From the NCBI GenBank assembly GCA_030690545.1, contig JAUYGN010000028.1, positions 1 through 64,000 on the forward strand: a stretch of 64,000 nucleotides of DNA, in the 5' to 3' direction. Made by a program: the position numbers and the translations under genes. How positions within the stretch are numbered: the stretch's first letter is position 1; every line of letters starts with the position of its first letter. Shown here piece after piece: positions 8,536 through 18,385 of the stretch. Source of the stretch: Solirubrobacteraceae bacterium. Lineage in GTDB: Bacteria; Actinomycetota; Thermoleophilia; Solirubrobacterales; Solirubrobacteraceae. The notes below the pieces were generated by a model that was not told where the DNA came from, did no database searches, and saw only the letters and a list, made by a program, of their open reading frames with translations.

Positions 8536-9941
8536 GCGGCGCCGCGCAGCACCGCCGCGGGCGGGTGCGCGGCGTAGAACTCGGCTTCCTGGCGGCCGAG
8601 CTCGGTCACCGGCTCGTCGCCGTAGATCCACTCGCGGGCGATCCGGTGCCAGTTGCCGCGCGCGCGCAGCTGGCTCATGACGGCGAGCGTGAGCATCTCC
8701 AGGCGGCGGCCGAAGAGGTGATCGGGCGGCAGCGTCTCGTGGCGCATCTTCGCGAAGTGCGACGAGCGCGGGTCGGACATCTCGATCATCACCTCGGTCG
8801 CGATCTCCGGCGTCAGCGCGACCTCGCCGTCCTGCACGTACCACCAGGTCATGTCGTGGACCTGCTCGAGGATGTCCTCGGGCGTGTAGTAGTCGGGCTT
8901 GGCGATGAAGCCGCCGGCGACGAGGTGATCGATCATCGCCTGCCCGTCGCCGGTCGCCGCGAGCCGCTGGATCTCCAGCTCGAACTCGGCGATCGCGGCC
9001 GGGATGCGCTTGAACAGCCCGAAGTCCAGGAACGCCATCCGCCCGTCGTCGAGCAGCAGCGAGTTGCCGGGGTGCGGGTCGCCGGAGAACTGGTGGTGGC
9101 GGTACATGCAGCCGAAGTAGAAGCGGTAGACGATCTCGCCCAGGCGGTCGCGCTCGGCCTGCGGCAGCTGCTTGAGCTCCTCGAAGCCGCGACCTGAGAC
9201 GAACTCGCTGACGATGACCTTCTCGTGCGAGAGCTTCGTCACGACCTCGGGCACGAAGATGAACGGGTGGCCGCGAAAGATCCGCGCGAGCGTGCGCTGG
9301 TTCTGCGCCTCGAGCTCGTAGTCGAGCTCCTCGTCGATCCGCGAGCGGATCTCCTCCCCCATCGCCTTCGGATCGAGGCCGGGCGCGACCATCTTCATCA
9401 GCCGCAGGATGATGCCGAGGTTCTGCATGTCCGCGCGGACGGCCTGCGCGACGCCGGGGTACTGGACCTTGACGGCGACGTCGCGGCCGTCCTTCAGCCG
9501 CGCGCGGTAGACCTGCCCGATCGACGCCGCCGCGATCGGCACCGGGTCGAAGGTGTAGAAGACGTCCTCGATCGAGGCGTCGTACTCGCCCTCGATGACC
9601 TTCCTCATGTCCTTGAAGGCGACCTTCGGCGCGGCGTCGCGCAGCTCGGCGAGCTTGGCCTGGAACTCCTCTCGGTACTCCTGCGGGACGAGGCCGACGT
9701 CGAGGAACGACATCACCTGGCCGAGCTTCATCGCGGCGCCCTTCATCGTCCCCAGCGCGGCGACGATCTGCTCGGCCGTCTCGAGCTGGCGCTTGGCGAG
9801 CGCCTGCTCGCGGCCGGTGTCCGAGCGCGCGACGTTCGTCGCGCGCGTGCCCATCTGCTTGGCCGCCTGCGTGGCGGCGAGCTTGCCGACCTTCGACGAG
9901 CGGCTCAGCCGCGATGTCGGGATTGCGTCCTTCTTGGCCAT
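8532..9941 (-). CDS. ABC1/AarF (UbiB-type) atypical kinase
   Basis: A 469-residue UbiB/ADCK-family atypical kinase-like ATPase. The N-terminal KxGQ motif is present (MKLGQVMSF, K72 to Q75), followed by the family's alanine-rich nucleotide loop PIAAASIGQVYRA, the lysine of VAVKVQYP, the catalytic SGDPHPGNSLLL and the metal-binding FLDFGLF. Family members support isoprenoid-quinone metabolism or lipid handling at membranes. The start is ATG 9941 (MAKKDAIPTS); the upstream open frame is not conserved-looking. It is translationally coupled to the downstream VTT membrane protein, which suggests a joint membrane-lipid or quinone role (inference). Confidence 0.92.
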   Translation of the reverse strand: MAKKDAIPTSRLSRSSKVGKLAATQAAKQMGTRATNVARSDTGREQALAKRQLETAEQIVAALGTMKGAAMKLGQVMSFLDVGLVPQEYREEFQAKLAELRDAAPKVAFKDMRKVIEGEYDASIEDVFYTFDPVPIAAASIGQVYRARLKDGRDVAVKVQYPGVAQAVRADMQNLGIILRLMKMVAPGLDPKAMGEEIRSRIDEELDYELEAQNQRTLARIFRGHPFIFVPEVVTKLSHEKVIVSEFVSGRGFEELKQLPQAERDRLGEIVYRFYFGCMYRHHQFSGDPHPGNSLLLDDGRMAFLDFGLFKRIPAAIAEFELEIQRLAATGDGQAMIDHLVAGGFIAKPDYYTPEDILEQVHDMTWWYVQDGEVALTPEIATEVMIEMSDPRSSHFAKMRHETLPPDHLFGRRLEMLTLAVMSQLRARGNWHRIAREWIYGDEPVTELGRQEAEFYAAHPPAAVLRGAA

Positions 9942-9972
9942 CGGCGGCGTCGGTATGCGGGCGCGGAGCCCG

Positions 9973-10698
9973 CTAGCCGGCTTCGCGCTGCACGCGCGAG
10001 CCGGGCACGATGTCGTCGCGCCCATCGGGCCAGCGCACCCAGGCCTTGTGCCCGCCGTCGTAGTCGTCGCCCCAGACGACGAGCGTCGCGGGCTCGCCCT
10101 GGACCGTGACCGGCTCGTCGCCCTCGGGATCCAGCCCGCGCCAGACGCGGATGAAGGCGTTGTGCTCCCACTCGTCGCCGATCGTCGTCGGATCGGTGTG
10201 GCCGGGGTGGACCTCGGTCGCGTGATCGAGACCCATCAGCGTGTCCATGATCGACGCCTTGATGTCCGCATAGGACGTGCTGCCGGGCGCGCGCACGCCG
10301 CCGATCGAGTTCTTGAAGAGCGTGTCGCCGGTGAAGACGTGACCGGGGACCGTGAAGTTCAGCATCCCCGCCGTGTGGCCCGGCGTGTGGACCGCGTCGA
10401 CCGGCAGGTCGCCGATCTGCAGCGGCGCGAAGGGCTCTGCGTCGACGGGCTCGTCGGGGTGGGCGAGGATCACGACGTCCGGGTAGCGCTGCGTGACGGC
10501 GTCCAGATCACAGACGTGGTCGTGGTGGTGGTGGGTCAGCAGCAGATGGGTGACCGCGACGCCGTGGCGCTCGGCGGCCTGGAAGAGCGGGTCCATCGGG
10601 CCGCCTGCATCGACGAGGAAGCCGGGCGCTCCGGGGCCGCTCGCGACGAGGTACGTGTTCGTCAGGAAGCCGTCGGACATGGAGCGTTCGATGAGCAT
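9973..10698 (-). CDS. MBL-fold hydrolase, glyoxalase II-like
   Basis: A 241-residue metallo-beta-lactamase-fold protein. The metal motif THHHHDH contains HxHxDH (H56, H58, D60, H61). VHTPGHTAGMLNF supplies the next His, FTGDTLF the bridging Asp, and EVHPGHTDPTTIG the final His, so a two-metal site is complete. The pattern is that of hydroxyacylglutathione hydrolase-like or persulfide dioxygenase-like MBL proteins. About 60 residues after the last ligand form an extra beta-rich tail (VTVQGEPATLVVWGDDYDGG). The start ATG 10698 is supported by a -10 hexamer 7 nt upstream. It is divergent from a glyoxalase I gene only 24 bp away. Confidence 0.88.
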   Translation of the reverse strand: MLIERSMSDGFLTNTYLVASGPGAPGFLVDAGGPMDPLFQAAERHGVAVTHLLLTHHHHDHVCDLDAVTQRYPDVVILAHPDEPVDAEPFAPLQIGDLPVDAVHTPGHTAGMLNFTVPGHVFTGDTLFKNSIGGVRAPGSTSYADIKASIMDTLMGLDHATEVHPGHTDPTTIGDEWEHNAFIRVWRGLDPEGDEPVTVQGEPATLVVWGDDYDGGHKAWVRWPDGRDDIVPGSRVQREAG

Positions 10699-10705
10699 GA
10701 GGGTC

Positions 10706-10715
10706 AGGGTACTGT
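10706..10715. promoter_or_regulatory. Overlapping divergent -10 elements (TACCCT on minus, TACTGT on plus)
   Basis: On the minus strand TACCCT (10711-10706) ends 7 nt before ATG 10698. On the plus strand TACTGT (10710-10715) ends 7 nt before ATG 10723. The two hexamers share the central TA of a GTAC palindrome, so RNA polymerase could occupy only one direction at a time. Both transcripts would be leaderless. Confidence 0.6.
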
Positions 10716-10722
10716 GTGATCG

Positions 10723-11106
10723 ATGGCTGCAAAGGAGCTCATCCATACGTGCTACCGGATCGGCGACATCGACCGCTCGGTGGCCTTCTACGAGGCGCTC
10801 GGCTTCGAAGAGCGCGCTCGCAAGCCGATCCGCGACGAGGCGATCAACGTCTTCATGGGCCTGCCCGGAGACGGCGATCGGCTCGAGCTGACGTACAACC
10901 ACGGGGTGTCGGAGTACACGCACGGGACCGGCTACAACCACATCGCGCTGACCGTCTCGGACATGGACGAGACGCTGGCCGCGCTGGCCGAGCAGGGCAT
11001 CGAGCCCGAGAAGCCGCCCTACCGCGTCCGCGAGGGCGGCTCGCTGCTGTGCTTCGTGCGCGATCCGGACGATTACCGGATCGAGCTCATCGAGCGCCCC
11101 TCGTAG
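10723..11106 (+). CDS. Glyoxalase I-like VOC protein (lactoylglutathione lyase type)
   Basis: A 127-residue vicinal-oxygen-chelate protein of the GloA type. It isomerises the hemithioacetal of methylglyoxal and a low-molecular-weight thiol in the cytosol. Metal ligands follow the glyoxalase I spacing: H8 (ELIHTCYRIGD), Glu in RLELTYNHGV, His in GTGYNHIALTV and Glu in YRIELIERPS. The motifs RSVAFYEALGFE and DPDDYRIEL are typical. Many actinobacteria lack glutathione, so another thiol may be the cofactor (inference). It forms a divergent pair with the glyoxalase II-like gene; the 3' end overlaps the DUF559 remnant. Confidence 0.92.
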   Translation: MAAKELIHTCYRIGDIDRSVAFYEALGFEERARKPIRDEAINVFMGLPGDGDRLELTYNHGVSEYTHGTGYNHIALTVSDMDETLAALAEQGIEPEKPPYRVREGGSLLCFVRDPDDYRIELIERPS

Positions 11107-11532
11107 CGGGCGGCGCCGGGCGCGCCGGCGGACCCGGGTAGAGCAGGGGGCGTAGCGCGCCGGCGACGGCGGGCGCGTCGCGAAGGACCCGGCGGTAGGT
11201 GAAGCGCAGGACCCGGTAGCCGAGCACGACGTAGCGCGCATCCCGCGCGCGATCGCGCTCGAAGGCGGCGTGCGTGAGGTGCGTCTCGCGGCCGTCGGTC
11301 TCGGCGATCAGTCGCTGCTCGGGCCAGAGGAAGTCGACCTCCTCGCCTTCGACGACGTGGTTGACGAGCGGTCGCGGCAGCGCGTGCGCGTCGCACAGCG
11401 CGAGGAAGATCCGCTCGAGCTCGCTGCGGGTCGGCTCGTCGTCGCGGTAGAGGTCGATCGCCGCGGTGAGCGGTGCCGCGCCTGGATGGGTGGGTCGCGA
11501 GCCGTGGCGTGCAGCTCGCGTTCGGATGCGCC
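11087..11532 (-). pseudogene. 5'-truncated DUF559 endonuclease-like remnant
   Basis: An open minus frame runs from just after an in-frame TAG (11535-11533) to TGA 11089-11087 but contains no ATG, GTG or TTG until deep inside the domain. Its translation includes AAPLTAAIDLYRDDEPTRSE, VDFLWPEQRLIAETDGRETH and ERDRARDARYVVLGYRVLRF. These align with the C-terminal about 125 residues of the intact DUF559 protein at 43288-44283, including its GAALLRAV and VVEVDGRDVHTTRRAFEHDR segments. About 200 N-terminal residues are missing. The ppx start region occupies the place where the 5' half should be, so this looks like a remnant left by a deletion or rearrangement. Confidence 0.75.
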
Positions 11533-11534
11533 TC

Positions 11535-11571
11535 TAAGCTGCTGCCGATGACCGCACCGGCCGCGAGCTGA
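11535..11571 (+). promoter_or_regulatory. -10 hexamer TAAGCT and 7-codon leader ORF before ppx
   Basis: TAAGCT (11535-11540) ends 7 nt before ATG 11548, which opens a seven-codon frame (MTAPAAS) closed by TGA 11569-11571. The ppx GTG follows 11 nt later in another frame. The arrangement suggests a leaderless mini-ORF translated ahead of ppx, perhaps by termination-reinitiation. Confidence 0.4.
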
Positions 11572-11582
11572 GCACGAACGCC

Positions 11583-13145
11583 GTGGCGGAGCGCCGTACA
11601 GCGGTCATCGACATGGGCTCGAACTCCTTCCGGCTGGTCGTCTTCGCGGCCGCCGCGGGCTGGTGGAAGCGCACCGACGAGATCTACCTGCCGGTGCGCA
11701 TCGGCGAGGGCCTCGACGCCGCCGGCGAGCTCGGCAAGAAGCCGATGAAGCGCGCGCTGGAGGCCGCCGAGGTGTTCGCCCACTTCTGCGCCGCGACCGG
11801 GATCGCCGGCCAGGACGGGGACGGCGGCGGCGACGACGGCGGGAGGGACGTCATCCAGGCCGTCGCCACGAGCGCGATCCGCGATGCCACCAACCAGCGC
11901 GCGTTCCTCGACCGCGTGCGCGACGAGACGGGCCTGCAGGTCAGCGTCCTCAGCCGCGCGCAGGAGGCCTACTACGGCTACCTCGCCGCGGTCAACTCGA
12001 CGACCGTCGCCGACGGCGCGGTGCTCGATCTCGGCGGCGGCTCGCTGCAGCTCGTCGAGGTCGTCAGCCGCCATCCGGGCCGGCTCGGCTCGTGGCCGCT
12101 GGGCGCGGTGCGGATGACCGAGCACTTCCTCGCCGACGACGACCCGCCGTCGAAGAAGGCGCGCAAGGCGCTCCGGGCGCACATCCGCGAGACGCTCGCC
12201 GACGAGGCCGGCTGGCTGCCGCGCTCGGGCCGCAAGATCGTCGGGATCGGCGGCACGATGCGCAACCTGGCGGCGGCGATCCAGGCCGGCGCGGGCCGGC
12301 CGTCGGTCGGCGGCATCCAGGGCTTTGAGATCACGCGCGCGGCGCTCGGCGACCTGATCGAGCGGCTGGCCGACATGCCCGCGTCGCAGCGCGGCAACGT
12401 CAAGGGCATCAAGTACGCGCGCGCCGACCTCATCCTGGCAGGCGCGATCACCGTCCAGGCAGTGCTCGAGCACGGCGAGTTCGACGCGATCACCGTCACC
12501 GAGGCGGGTCTGCGCGAGGGCGTCTTCTTCAGCGCGCACCTCGACGGCGACCCGCCGCTGTTCGACGACGTGCGCCGCGCGAGCGTCGGCAACCTCGCCG
12601 CCCGCTATCAGGTCGGCCCCGCGCACACCGAGCACGTCGCGCGGCTGGCGCTCACCCTCTTCGACGAGCTCGCCGAGCACGGCCTGCATCCCGGCGACCG
12701 CTGGGAGCGCGAGCTGCTGTTCTCGGCCTGCGTGCTGCACGACATCGGCATGTCCGTCGACTACGACGACCACCACAAGCACTCGAGGTATCTCATTCTC
12801 AACGCCGGACTGCCGGGCTACGACCCGCGCGAGGTCGCGCTGATCGCGCAGGCCGCCCGCTATCACCGCAAGGGCATGCCGGAGTTCGGCGAGCTCGCGC
12901 CGCTCGCGCAGGACGGCGACCGCGAGCGGCTCGATCGCCTGGCGATCCTGCTGCGCCTCGCCGAGGACCTCGAGCGCAGCCGCGACCAGAGCGTCCGCGC
13001 GGCCCACGTCGCGGCCGACAACGGCACGATTCGCCTCGAGCTGGAGTCCGACGGCAGCGCGGCCGTCGAGCGCTGGGCGGTGCAGCGCGAGGTCGAGCTG
13101 TTCGAGCGCGCGTTCGCCCGTGAGCTCAAGGTGGAGACGACATGA
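11583..13145 (+). CDS. ppx: Ppx/GppA family exopolyphosphatase with C-terminal HD domain
   Basis: A 520-residue Ppx/GppA phosphatase, which releases phosphate from polyphosphate or from the pentaphosphate group of pppGpp. The N-terminal actin-like ATPase fold shows AVIDMGSNSFRLVVF (phosphate 1 motif), VATSAIRDATN, AVLDLGGGSLQLVEV and KIVGIGGTMRNLA. The C-terminal part is an HD-type domain (HTEHVARLALTLFDELA, VLHDIGMSVDYDDHHKHSRYLI). A glycine/aspartate-rich insertion (GQDGDGGGDDGGRD) lies near residue 80. The start is GTG 11583; no convincing Shine-Dalgarno sequence precedes it. The stop overlaps a 21-codon ORF by ATGA. Confidence 0.92.
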   Translation: MAERRTAVIDMGSNSFRLVVFAAAAGWWKRTDEIYLPVRIGEGLDAAGELGKKPMKRALEAAEVFAHFCAATGIAGQDGDGGGDDGGRDVIQAVATSAIRDATNQRAFLDRVRDETGLQVSVLSRAQEAYYGYLAAVNSTTVADGAVLDLGGGSLQLVEVVSRHPGRLGSWPLGAVRMTEHFLADDDPPSKKARKALRAHIRETLADEAGWLPRSGRKIVGIGGTMRNLAAAIQAGAGRPSVGGIQGFEITRAALGDLIERLADMPASQRGNVKGIKYARADLILAGAITVQAVLEHGEFDAITVTEAGLREGVFFSAHLDGDPPLFDDVRRASVGNLAARYQVGPAHTEHVARLALTLFDELAEHGLHPGDRWERELLFSACVLHDIGMSVDYDDHHKHSRYLILNAGLPGYDPREVALIAQAARYHRKGMPEFGELAPLAQDGDRERLDRLAILLRLAEDLERSRDQSVRAAHVAADNGTIRLELESDGSAAVERWAVQREVELFERAFARELKVETT

Positions 13146-15644: not shown

Positions 15645-17261
15645 CTACGTGTCGAGCAGCACCCCGGGGTTCATCAGCCCCGCCGGGTCGACGGCGGCCT
15701 TGGCGGCGCGCAGCGCCGTGGCGAAGACGTCGGGGCGCTGGCGGTCGTACCACGGCCGGTGGTCGCGGCCGACCGCGTGATGGTGGGTGATCGTGCCGCC
15801 GGCGGCGAGCACGGCGTCGCTGACGACGGCCTTGATCTGCGCCCACTGCGCGACCTCCTCGCCGCGGCGCGCCGGCGCCAGCACGGTGAAGTACGGTGCC
15901 GCTCCGTCGGGATAGACGTGCGAGACGCGGCAGGTGATCCGCCCGCCGTCGCCGATCGCCTCGGACGCCGCTGCCGTCACCGTGGCGTGCAGCGACGAGA
16001 ACCGCTCCCAGGTGACGGCCGTCTCGAAGGTCTCCGACAGGATCCCCATCGCGACGAACGCGTCGCGCAGGTAGGGCGCGCGGAAGAAGGCCGCCCGCCA
16101 GGCGCCGACGGCGTCGCCGCTGCCGGCCGGGTCGCCGGCGAAGCGCGGCCGCCGCACGGCGCCGTCGTCCCACTCGCCGCCGGCCTCGGCGCACAGGTGC
16201 AGCGCCCGATCGAGCAGCTCGCCGACCGGGACGATCGCCTCCGACGCGCCCTCGAAGCCGAGCACGAGCAAGGCCGCGGTGCCGTCGGCGGCGCCGGTCA
16301 TGCGCGCCTCCTCGGCATCGATCAGCCGGCAGTTGGAGGGACCCAGCCCCGACTGCGAGATCGCCCGCAGCGCGTCGACCCCGGCACCGAACGAGGAGAA
16401 GCGCACCGCGGCCAGCGAGTTGGCCCGCGGTCGCGGGCGCACGCGAACCCATGCCTCCGTGAGGACGCCGAGGATGCCCTCCGAGCCGAGCAGCATCCGG
16501 TCCGGTGAGACGCCGGCGCCCGATCGCGGCAGCCGCCGTGACTCCCAGGCGCCGGACGGCGTGACCGCGCGGACCGACTCGACGAGGTCGTCGATCTGCG
16601 TCTCGACCGTCGCGAAGTGCCCGGCCGCGCGCGTCGCGATCCAGCCGCCGAGCGTCGAGAGCTCGAAGGACTGCGGGTAGAAGCGCAGCGTCAGATCCAG
16701 CGCGCGCAGCTGCCTCGCCAGCACCGGACCGGTCGCGCCGGCCTGGATCAGCGCCGCGCGCGAGACGTCGTCGATCCGCAGCACGCGATCGAGCGCGCCG
16801 AGATCGAGCGACACGGCGCCGTCGAAGCGCGCCGGCACCTCGCACTGCACGCCGCCGCTGACGCTCGTGCCGCCGCCGTAGGGCACGACCGCGAGGTTCG
16901 CGCCCGCCGCCCACTCGAGCACCGCCTCGACGTCGCGCTCGCCGCGCGGGCGGGCGACGACGTCCGGCGGGAACCGGAACTCGCCGGCGAAGCCGCGCAC
17001 GACGTCGCCGTAGGACCTGCCCCAGGCGTGCGACGCGCGCGCGTGCGCGTCGTCGCAGCAGATCGCGCGCAGCGCCTCCGCCTGCGGCACCGCGACGCGC
17101 GGGGCGGGCAGCGACGCGTCGTCGAGCGCGACCGGCTCGCGCACGTCGCCGTCGCCGCTGATCCGCAGGTGCTCCTGCAGGCCGCCTGCGACCGCCCGCA
17201 GTTGCGCCACCGACCAGGCGTCGTCCTCATAGCCCCAGCCCCAGTGATTGCGCCTGCGCAT
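15645..17261 (-). CDS. FAD-linked oxidase, alkyldihydroxyacetonephosphate synthase-like
   Basis: A 538-residue VAO/PCMH-type flavoprotein. The N-terminal MRRRNHWGWGYED is characteristic of alkyl-DHAP synthase relatives. The FAD pyrophosphate loop is VVPYGGGTSVSGGVQCE, and SFELSTLGGWIATRAAGH and SEGILGVLTEAWVRVRP complete the FAD domain. The C-terminus carries GGTITHHHAVGRDHRPWY, matching the catalytic His-rich loop of that enzyme, and ends MNPGVLLD. Eukaryotic homologues exchange the acyl chain of acyl-DHAP for a fatty alcohol to make ether lipids; the bacterial reaction is unproven. The start ATG 17261 is supported by TATCTT 8 nt upstream. It is divergent from a glycosyltransferase gene. Confidence 0.85.
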   Translation of the reverse strand: MRRRNHWGWGYEDDAWSVAQLRAVAGGLQEHLRISGDGDVREPVALDDASLPAPRVAVPQAEALRAICCDDAHARASHAWGRSYGDVVRGFAGEFRFPPDVVARPRGERDVEAVLEWAAGANLAVVPYGGGTSVSGGVQCEVPARFDGAVSLDLGALDRVLRIDDVSRAALIQAGATGPVLARQLRALDLTLRFYPQSFELSTLGGWIATRAAGHFATVETQIDDLVESVRAVTPSGAWESRRLPRSGAGVSPDRMLLGSEGILGVLTEAWVRVRPRPRANSLAAVRFSSFGAGVDALRAISQSGLGPSNCRLIDAEEARMTGAADGTAALLVLGFEGASEAIVPVGELLDRALHLCAEAGGEWDDGAVRRPRFAGDPAGSGDAVGAWRAAFFRAPYLRDAFVAMGILSETFETAVTWERFSSLHATVTAAASEAIGDGGRITCRVSHVYPDGAAPYFTVLAPARRGEEVAQWAQIKAVVSDAVLAAGGTITHHHAVGRDHRPWYDRQRPDVFATALRAAKAAVDPAGLMNPGVLLDT

Positions 17262-17269
17262 CGTGCGCG

Positions 17270-17275
17270 AAGATA
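17270..17275 (-). promoter_or_regulatory. -10 hexamer TATCTT, leaderless-type (minus strand)
   Basis: Read on the minus strand, TATCTT ends 8 nt before ATG 17261. The adjoining GATATC palindrome also lies 9 nt upstream of ATG 17285 on the plus strand, so the 23-bp divergent gap may hold both promoters; the plus-strand element is weaker. Confidence 0.45.
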
Positions 17276-17284
17276 TCCCCAACG

Positions 17285-18385
17285 ATGCCGACCACCATCT
17301 CCGTCTTCACCGCCTCGATCGGCGCCGGGCACGACGTGCCCGCCAACGTCCTCGCCGGCGCACTGCGCGAGCGCGGCGCCACGGTCGACGTCGTCGACGG
17401 GCTCGAGGTCGCCGGTCCGCTCGCGCGCGCGACCATCGACCGCGCCTCGTCGCTGGACTCGGCGGTGGGCAGAGTCGCGTTCGAGGCGGCCTACCTCCTC
17501 GGCACGGGCCTTGCTCCGCTGCGGCGCGCCGGCTCGAAGCTCGTCGAGCGGGCGATGGGCGGTCGCCTGGAGGACCACCTGAGCGCCCATCCTGCCGACG
17601 TCGTCGTGTCGACCTATCCGCTCTGGAGCGAGCTGTTCGGGCGCATGCGCAGCGCCGGCACGCTGACGGCGCCCGCCGTCAGCGCGATCACCGACCTCGC
17701 CGCGTTGCGCTACTGGGCGCATCCCGGGATCGACCTGCACCTGCTCACGCATCCCGAGTCCGAGCCCGAGGTGCGCTGGATCGCCGGGCCGCACACGCGC
17801 GTCGAGGCCGTTCACGGGCTGACCGACCCGCGCTTCGGCGATCCGCCCGAGCGCCTTGCCGCGCGCGCCGAGCTCGAGCTGCCCTCGCGCGGCGCGCTCG
17901 TCGTCGTCTCCGGCGGCGGCTGGGGCGTCGGCGACCTGCGCGGAGCGACCGACACCGCGCTGCACTACGGCGCCAACACCGTCGTCGTGCTCGTCGGGTA
18001 CAACGACGGCGCGCGCGAGCAGATGCAGGCGGCCTACGGTGCCGACGACCGCGTCCAGGTCTGGGGCTTCACCGATCGCATGGTCACGCTGCTGTCGGCC
18101 GCCGACGTGCTGATCCACTCGACCGCCGGGCTGACCGTGCTCGAGGCGCTGATCTGCGACTGCCGGGTCATCTCCTACGGCTGGGCGCGCGGTCACATCC
18201 GCCCGAACAACACGGCCTACGAGCGCCTCGGGATGGTCTCCGTGGCGAAGAACCGCCCGCAGCTCGCGCACGCGCTCGTCCACGCGCTCGCCGCCCCGCC
18301 GGTCGGTCCGCAGCGTCGCGAGCTGCCGACGGCCGCCGAGCTCGTCCTCGGGCTCGTCGAGCCGGTGCCGATCCACGCCGCCTGA
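17285..18385 (+). CDS. Glycosyltransferase, MGDG synthase/diacylglycerol glucosyltransferase type
   Basis: A 366-residue GT-B enzyme of family GT28. The N-terminal half matches the monogalactosyldiacylglycerol synthase domain (FTASIGAGHDVPANVLAGAL, STYPLWSELFGRMR). The C-terminal half has the nucleotide-sugar-binding domain (VVVSGGGWGVGDLRGA, VQVWGFTDRMVTLLSAADVL, STAGLTVLEALICDCRVISY). It probably transfers a hexose from a nucleotide sugar to a lipid acceptor at the inner membrane face. The gene is divergent from an ether-lipid-synthase-like gene 23 bp away, which suggests glycolipid synthesis. Confidence 0.88.
   Translation: MPTTISVFTASIGAGHDVPANVLAGALRERGATVDVVDGLEVAGPLARATIDRASSLDSAVGRVAFEAAYLLGTGLAPLRRAGSKLVERAMGGRLEDHLSAHPADVVVSTYPLWSELFGRMRSAGTLTAPAVSAITDLAALRYWAHPGIDLHLLTHPESEPEVRWIAGPHTRVEAVHGLTDPRFGDPPERLAARAELELPSRGALVVVSGGGWGVGDLRGATDTALHYGANTVVVLVGYNDGAREQMQAAYGADDRVQVWGFTDRMVTLLSAADVLIHSTAGLTVLEALICDCRVISYGWARGHIRPNNTAYERLGMVSVAKNRPQLAHALVHALAAPPVGPQRRELPTAAELVLGLVEPVPIHAA

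What the first reader, a model, noticed from the sequence alone, without database searches (positions are those of the whole stretch)
10698..10723. Overlapping divergent -10 elements in a 24-bp gap between glyoxalase II-like and glyoxalase I genes
TACCCT (minus) and TACTGT (plus) share the TA of one GTAC, each 7 nt from its own start codon. Both genes would be leaderless, and RNA polymerase binding in one direction must exclude the other. The two encoded enzyme types act in sequence on methylglyoxal adducts, so mutually exclusive firing from one site could balance their output.
Basis: partly seen in the sequence, partly recalled or inferred. Interest (0 to 1): 0.6.

Follow-up and report, generated by a model that had tools for sequence, protein, structure and literature searches.

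The report
Shared promoter between two leaderless genes
Two neighbouring genes that point away from each other share one tiny promoter core that very probably starts both messages at, or within a base or two of, their start codons; the arrangement is kept across a family of actinobacteria, but promoters of this two-way kind are already known.

Summary
In the 24-bp gap 10699-10722 lie a minus TACCCT and a plus TACTGT, each 7 nt from its start codon, sharing the TA at 10710-10711. It is not chance: in 878 kb of the same genome TANNNT peaks 6-10 nt before start codons (140 of 756 starts; background about 1-2 per position), so leaderless promoters are general here. The divergent pair is kept across the family (Solirubrobacteraceae, inferred). 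All six same-genus genomes that carry the MBL gene keep both hexamers; five keep the exact 24-bp gap. Of 69 tight pairs in 15 genera, 48 carry a -10 for both genes and 27 (6 genera) share the TA; shuffled gaps give 0.18 and 0.07. About ten others use the TANNNTA overlap; 19 have separate -10s. This is a bidirectional promoter of the published shared -10 kind in a leaderless setting. Mutual exclusion of polymerases is plausible by geometry. Balancing of the two enzymes is unsupported: the overlap is often absent in relatives, and published bidirectional promoters at basal strength do not compete. The enzymes are glyoxalase I-like and II-like, below curated GloA/GloB cut-offs. No transcript data exist here.

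The parts
9973..10698 (-). MBL-fold hydrolase gene (glyoxalase II-like), start ATG at 10698
   Evidence: PF00753 1.6e-15; GloB model 64 bits, below its cut-off of 200.8; THHHHDH at residues 55-61; start codon position kept as ATG/GTG in all 90 relatives read
10706..10711 (-). -10 element TACCCT for the MBL gene, 7 nt before its ATG
   Evidence: kept as TACCCT or TACTCT in 6 of 6 same-genus genomes; TANNNT at 6-7 nt in 67 of 90 family loci
10710..10715 (+). -10 element TACTGT for the VOC gene, 7 nt before its ATG
   Evidence: kept as TACTGT or TACTCT in 6 of 6 same-genus genomes, in G001 before a displaced small ORF
10710..10711 (.). TA base pairs shared by both -10 elements (positions -12/-11 of each), centre of GTAC
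   Evidence: invariant in the genus; shared-TA geometry in 27 of 69 tight pairs, 6 genera
10699..10722 (.). 24-bp intergenic gap = bidirectional promoter core and both discriminators
   Evidence: length exactly 24 in 5 of 6 same-genus genomes
10723..11106 (+). VOC-superfamily gene, glyoxalase I-like
   Evidence: PF00903 9e-20; GloA model 89.9 bits, below its cut-off of 165; four metal-ligand positions H8, E55, H73, E121 present

Best explanation
A bidirectional core promoter. RNA polymerase can melt the same GTAC-centred stretch in either orientation; sigma reads TACTGT to the right or TACCCT to the left. Each message starts at, or within 1-2 nt of, its start codon (predicted start sites 23-25 bp apart), so both genes are leaderless and one promoter core sets both 5' ends. 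Shown: position, conservation, and the genome-wide leaderless signal. Inferred: actual initiation, the start sites, and that two polymerases cannot sit there together. Most likely the arrangement gives simple low-level expression of two neighbouring enzymes from a compact gap, not a switch.
For: Direct reading. TANNNT peak 6-10 nt before starts in 878 kb of the same genome. Family: MBL -10 in 53, VOC -10 in 64, both in 48 and shared TA in 27 of 69 tight pairs; shuffled gaps give means of 1.6, 1.9, 0.18 and 0.07. Spacing histogram at the fixed MBL start: 22 at 6 nt and 45 at 7 nt of 90, near zero at most other spacings, with a minor peak of 10 at 11 nt. In the genus 8 of 10 core positions are invariant against 4 of 14 flanking (Fisher p 0.036). 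Across genera the letters change (TACCCT/TACTGT, TAGCCT/TACGCT, TACCGT/TACTCT) but the TANNNT positions stay, as expected of -10 boxes and not of an operator. MBL starts are only ATG/GTG, the codons that work leaderless in mycobacteria (PMC4633059). Published bidirectional promoters have start sites 18, 10 or 23 bp apart (PMC12825309) and are defined as 7-25 bp apart (PMC10268837).
Against: No RNA data. No -35 box is recognisable. The hexamers match only the TANNNT minimum. VOC starts were chosen with a preference for TANNNT in the family count, which inflates the VOC, both and shared-TA figures somewhat; the MBL figures are free of this. 16 of 69 pairs lack a strict MBL -10.
Confidence: 0.85

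Rival explanations
1. One reading: mutually exclusive firing from one site is selected because it balances glyoxalase I-like and II-like output.
For: Steric exclusion is expected when -10 elements overlap (PMC12825309); the gene pair and the small gap are kept across genera.
Against: 19 pairs have separate -10s and about 10 use another overlap; the shared-TA state changes at least 7 times on the VOC tree (short protein). Basal bidirectional promoters tested in E. coli did not compete. Exclusion lowers each output in proportion to the other's strength; it does not fix a ratio (inference). A shared substrate pathway is not shown.
Confidence: 0.1
2. Two leaderless promoters that each serve their own gene and came to overlap only because the gap is short; the sharing of TA is neutral geometry with no function of its own. 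(This is compatible with the best explanation; it is a rival to any claim that overlap is selected.)
For: Gap length varies from 18 to 75 bp in relatives and both genes stay leaderless at all lengths; given a gap of 24 and 7-nt spacers the overlap is forced; one such pair in 95 is not far from the 0.3% expected.
Against: 27 of 69 pairs in 6 genera share exactly the TA and some ten more share TANNNTA; the exact 24-bp gap and core are kept in the genus while flanks diverge. But this is also expected if each -10 is kept for its own gene.
Confidence: 0.5
3. The conserved AG-GTACT-TGTG block is an operator for a regulator, not a promoter.
For: Pseudo-palindromic around GTAC; TGTG at the end of and after the plus hexamer is invariant in the genus; the motif is unique in the genome at up to 2 mismatches, as a dedicated site might be.
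Against: Other genera keep TANNNT at 6-7 nt with quite different letters; the position relative to start codons matches the genome-wide -10 peak; a regulator's site would often recur elsewhere.
Confidence: 0.05

Closest known systems
Bidirectional promoters with shared -10 elements (Warman et al. 2021, as described in PMC10268837 and PMC12825309)
   Same: Overlapping -10 elements on opposite strands; predicted start sites 23-25 bp apart, close to the published 23-bp configuration; drives two mRNAs
   Different: Both products predicted leaderless, so the promoter also fixes both translation starts; high-GC actinobacterium; only the TANNNT minimum and no visible -35; not yet shown to initiate
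Leaderless genes of Actinobacteria with TANNNT about 12 bp before the start codon (PMC3160421, PMC3898074, PMC4633059)
   Same: TANNNT at 6-8 nt, ATG/GTG start, no Shine-Dalgarno; about 18% of starts here, like the published actinobacterial average of 19.2%
   Different: Two such genes back to back on one core
Glyoxalase I (GloA) and glyoxalase II (GloB)
   Same: VOC fold with the H/E/H/E metal-ligand positions; MBL fold with THHHHDH
   Different: Both score below curated GloA/GloB cut-offs; no GloB C-terminal domain hit; substrate and thiol unknown

Membership tests
Bidirectional promoter (shared -10, Warman/Grainger definition) | -10 elements on opposite strands overlap in a defined register | tested here: met
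   Shared TA; same register in 27 of 69 relatives
Bidirectional promoter (shared -10, Warman/Grainger definition) | Divergent transcription start sites 7-25 bp apart | not testable with these tools
   Predicted 23-25 bp from the -10 positions; no RNA data
Bidirectional promoter (shared -10, Warman/Grainger definition) | Transcription in both directions from the fragment | not testable with these tools
   Needs in vitro transcription or a reporter
Leaderless gene (actinobacterial) | TANNNT 6-8 nt before an ATG/GTG start | tested here: met
   Both genes; genome-wide peak
Leaderless gene (actinobacterial) | No Shine-Dalgarno sequence at working distance | tested here: met
   Read directly: no purine-rich box 5-12 nt before either ATG
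Leaderless gene (actinobacterial) | mRNA 5' end at the start codon | not testable with these tools
   No transcript data
GloB hydroxyacylglutathione hydrolase | Score above the curated family cut-off | tested here: not met
   TIGR03413 64.4 bits against 200.8
GloA lactoylglutathione lyase | Score above the curated family cut-off | tested here: not met
   NF050074 89.9 against 165; TIGR00068 76.6 against 120
GloA lactoylglutathione lyase | Four metal ligands H, E, H, E | tested here: met
   H8, E55, H73, E121 align with H/E/H/E of a solved lactoylglutathione lyase; that these are the ligands is general knowledge of the family

The most novel reading that the evidence does not exclude
A single bidirectional core promoter sets both transcription starts and both translation starts, so polymerase orientation chooses which of two leaderless enzymes is made, with polymerase exclusion used as a conserved expression or noise control; across one bacterial family the same orthologous pair has moved repeatedly between the 23-bp, 18-bp and separate geometries, making it a natural series for testing what overlap does.
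Probability: 0.12. Interest if true: 0.6.

Novelty: new member of a known kind. Interest (0 to 1): 0.33.

Why it matters
It is a clean sequence example of a bidirectional promoter between two leaderless genes, and relatives supply dozens of variants of the same gene pair with overlapping and separate -10 elements. That set would let polymerase competition at shared promoters be tested in a natural series. In itself it follows from two known facts: leaderless genes are common in actinobacteria, and -10 elements are nearly symmetrical.

Tried and rejected
A -35-requiring sigma-70 scan found nothing in 9600-11800; by eye the best is TTTGCA for the minus promoter at 16 nt, inside VOC codons, not kept in two of the genus members, so no claim. 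An RNA family at the site: none. An operator reading: the motif is unique in the genome and changes between genera except at TANNNT. The Warman 2021 paper is not held; its definitions are taken from two later papers that describe it. Papers joining leaderless genes with bidirectional promoters: one hit, on an archaeon, not read further.

Full report
OBSERVATION. The gap between the two start codons reads, on the plus strand, CAT gagggtcAGGGTACTGTgtgatcg ATG (10696-10725). Every detail of the finding holds: 24 bp, TACCCT on the minus strand, TACTGT on the plus strand, a shared TA at 10710-10711, and a 7-nt spacer on each side. Starts are well fixed: the VOC frame has a stop at 10717-10719, and the MBL start stands at the same aligned position as ATG or GTG in all 90 family loci read.

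WHERE IT IS. The window is contig C120 of a 3.53-Mb, 149-contig assembly; the 878 kb sampled are 71% GC.

IS IT MORE THAN CHANCE. I called 773 genes in 878 kb of the same genome and counted TANNNT by distance from the start codon. Counts at spacings 6, 7, 8, 9 and 10 were 25, 42, 26, 32 and 15 of 756; nearly all others were 0-3. So about 18% of starts carry a -10 element at leaderless or near-leaderless distance, and the commonest spacing is the 7 nt seen here. This agrees with a published actinobacterial mean of 19.2% leaderless genes (PMC3160421). Among 95 divergent pairs in the sample, 7 have gaps of 15-35 bp and this is the only one with two strict TANNNT in shared-TA register. Two strict boxes at 7 nt each would be expected in about 0.3% of pairs from the leaderless rate alone, and 4e-6 from background.

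CONSERVATION. Seven genomes of the genus are held; six carry the MBL gene. Five keep a gap of exactly 24 bp with both hexamers at 7 nt (TACCCT or TACTCT; TACTGT or TACTCT); the sixth, G001, keeps both hexamers but the VOC start is displaced by an insertion. In the six, 8 of 10 core positions are invariant against 4 of 14 flanking positions (p 0.036). Family-wide, 69 loci in 15 genera have the divergent pair with a gap of 10-80 bp: 53 have a strict -10 for MBL, 64 for VOC, 48 both, and 27 in six genera share the TA. Shuffling the letters of each gap gave means of 1.6, 1.9, 0.18 and 0.07 (largest of 1000: 7, 8, 2 and 1). VOC starts were chosen with a preference for a -10, so the VOC, both and shared-TA figures are somewhat generous; the MBL starts are fixed and give 67 of 90 at exactly 6 or 7 nt.

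VARIANTS. Besides shared TA, some relatives use TANNNTA (for example TACGCTA in G009), the commonest published register; asking only for A(-11) and T(-7), about ten do; 19 have two separate -10s. One genus (g9) holds shared-TA, 18-class and other forms. On a tree of the VOC proteins the shared-TA state needs 12 changes, at least 7 forced by well-supported branches; the protein is short, so this is a rough count. Both genes thus tend to stay leaderless and close, while the register of overlap moves.

MECHANISM. Best reading: a bidirectional promoter in which polymerase binds in either orientation. Published work gives preferred start-site distances of 18, 10 and 23 bp, with small variation because the -10 to start-site distance varies (PMC12825309); the configuration here predicts 23 bp at optimal spacing or 25 bp if both start at the A of ATG. 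Steric exclusion of two polymerases is stated as established for such promoters. Whether it matters is another question: five tested E. coli promoters at basal strength showed no effect of one direction on the other, and competition appeared only when one direction was made strong. The promoter here has no visible -35, which suggests, but does not show, low strength. The claim that exclusion balances two enzymes is therefore weak. It is also not specific to the shared TA, since polymerase footprints would clash for any gap in this range (inference).

THE GENES. P0001 is a VOC protein with best PDB relatives named lactoylglutathione lyase (1.8e-35) and the four expected metal positions, but below the curated glyoxalase I cut-offs; P0002 is an MBL-fold hydrolase related to hydroxyacylglutathione hydrolases, below the GloB cut-off. 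Calling them glyoxalase I-like and II-like is fair; sequential action on one adduct is unproven.

A SIDE FINDING. In five relatives the promoter is followed by a small ORF with a GGGGGC-TTC-GCCCCC hairpin encoding RGLRPLT before the VOC gene, and the same small ORF stands before rpoC in two other genomes. It is not in this window's genome and I did not find what it does; it is listed under things noticed in passing.

VERDICT. Observation confirmed; promoter reading supported at about 0.85 by sequence alone; regulatory balancing at about 0.1. A well-conserved example of a known kind.

Noticed in passing
L011/L146 (G001), L023/L149 (G018), L024/L098 (G013), L104/L200 (G141), L020 (G015): just downstream of the promoter region: In five relatives the VOC gene is preceded by a small ORF that begins with a near copy of the VOC start codons, then a hairpin AAGGGGGC-TTC-GCCCCCTT encoding RGLRPLT (e.g. 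MELIPRGLRPLTPDLRWCSAV, MASELILRGLRPLTSSHRSSYPPRVT), and in most cases runs into the VOC start codon (ATGA overlap in L200). It lies in five separate places on the VOC tree and is absent from this window's genome. It looks like a leader peptide or attenuator; unexplained.
   Followed up: partly
L147/L155 7149-7226 (G115, VAWK01000001.1) and L206 (G122): rpoB-rpoC junction: The same small ORF and hairpin sits between rpoB and rpoC (MIDITRGLRPLTSSGLTPSQKVSRP and MIVRGLRPLTAFGLTPSQRNVERGLQND), again overlapping the rpoC start; in G115 it copies the rpoC start MIDI. Shared motif RGLRPLT..GLTPSQ. Matches to the DNA motif were found only in this family among 399 genomes of the class.
   Followed up: partly
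window 17259-17287: A second tight divergent pair, 23-bp gap cgtgcgcgaagatatccccaacg, with a strict -10 on the minus side only.
   Followed up: no
L159 8148 (G000:C17), gap ctgcgttgtcacactattgggg: Another 22-bp divergent gap in the same genome with overlapping TAGTGT (minus) and CACTAT (plus), a different overlap register.
   Followed up: no
window 10716-10718, GTG after the plus hexamer: GTG following the plus -10 is invariant in the genus although it is outside both hexamers; may be a discriminator preference.
   Followed up: no
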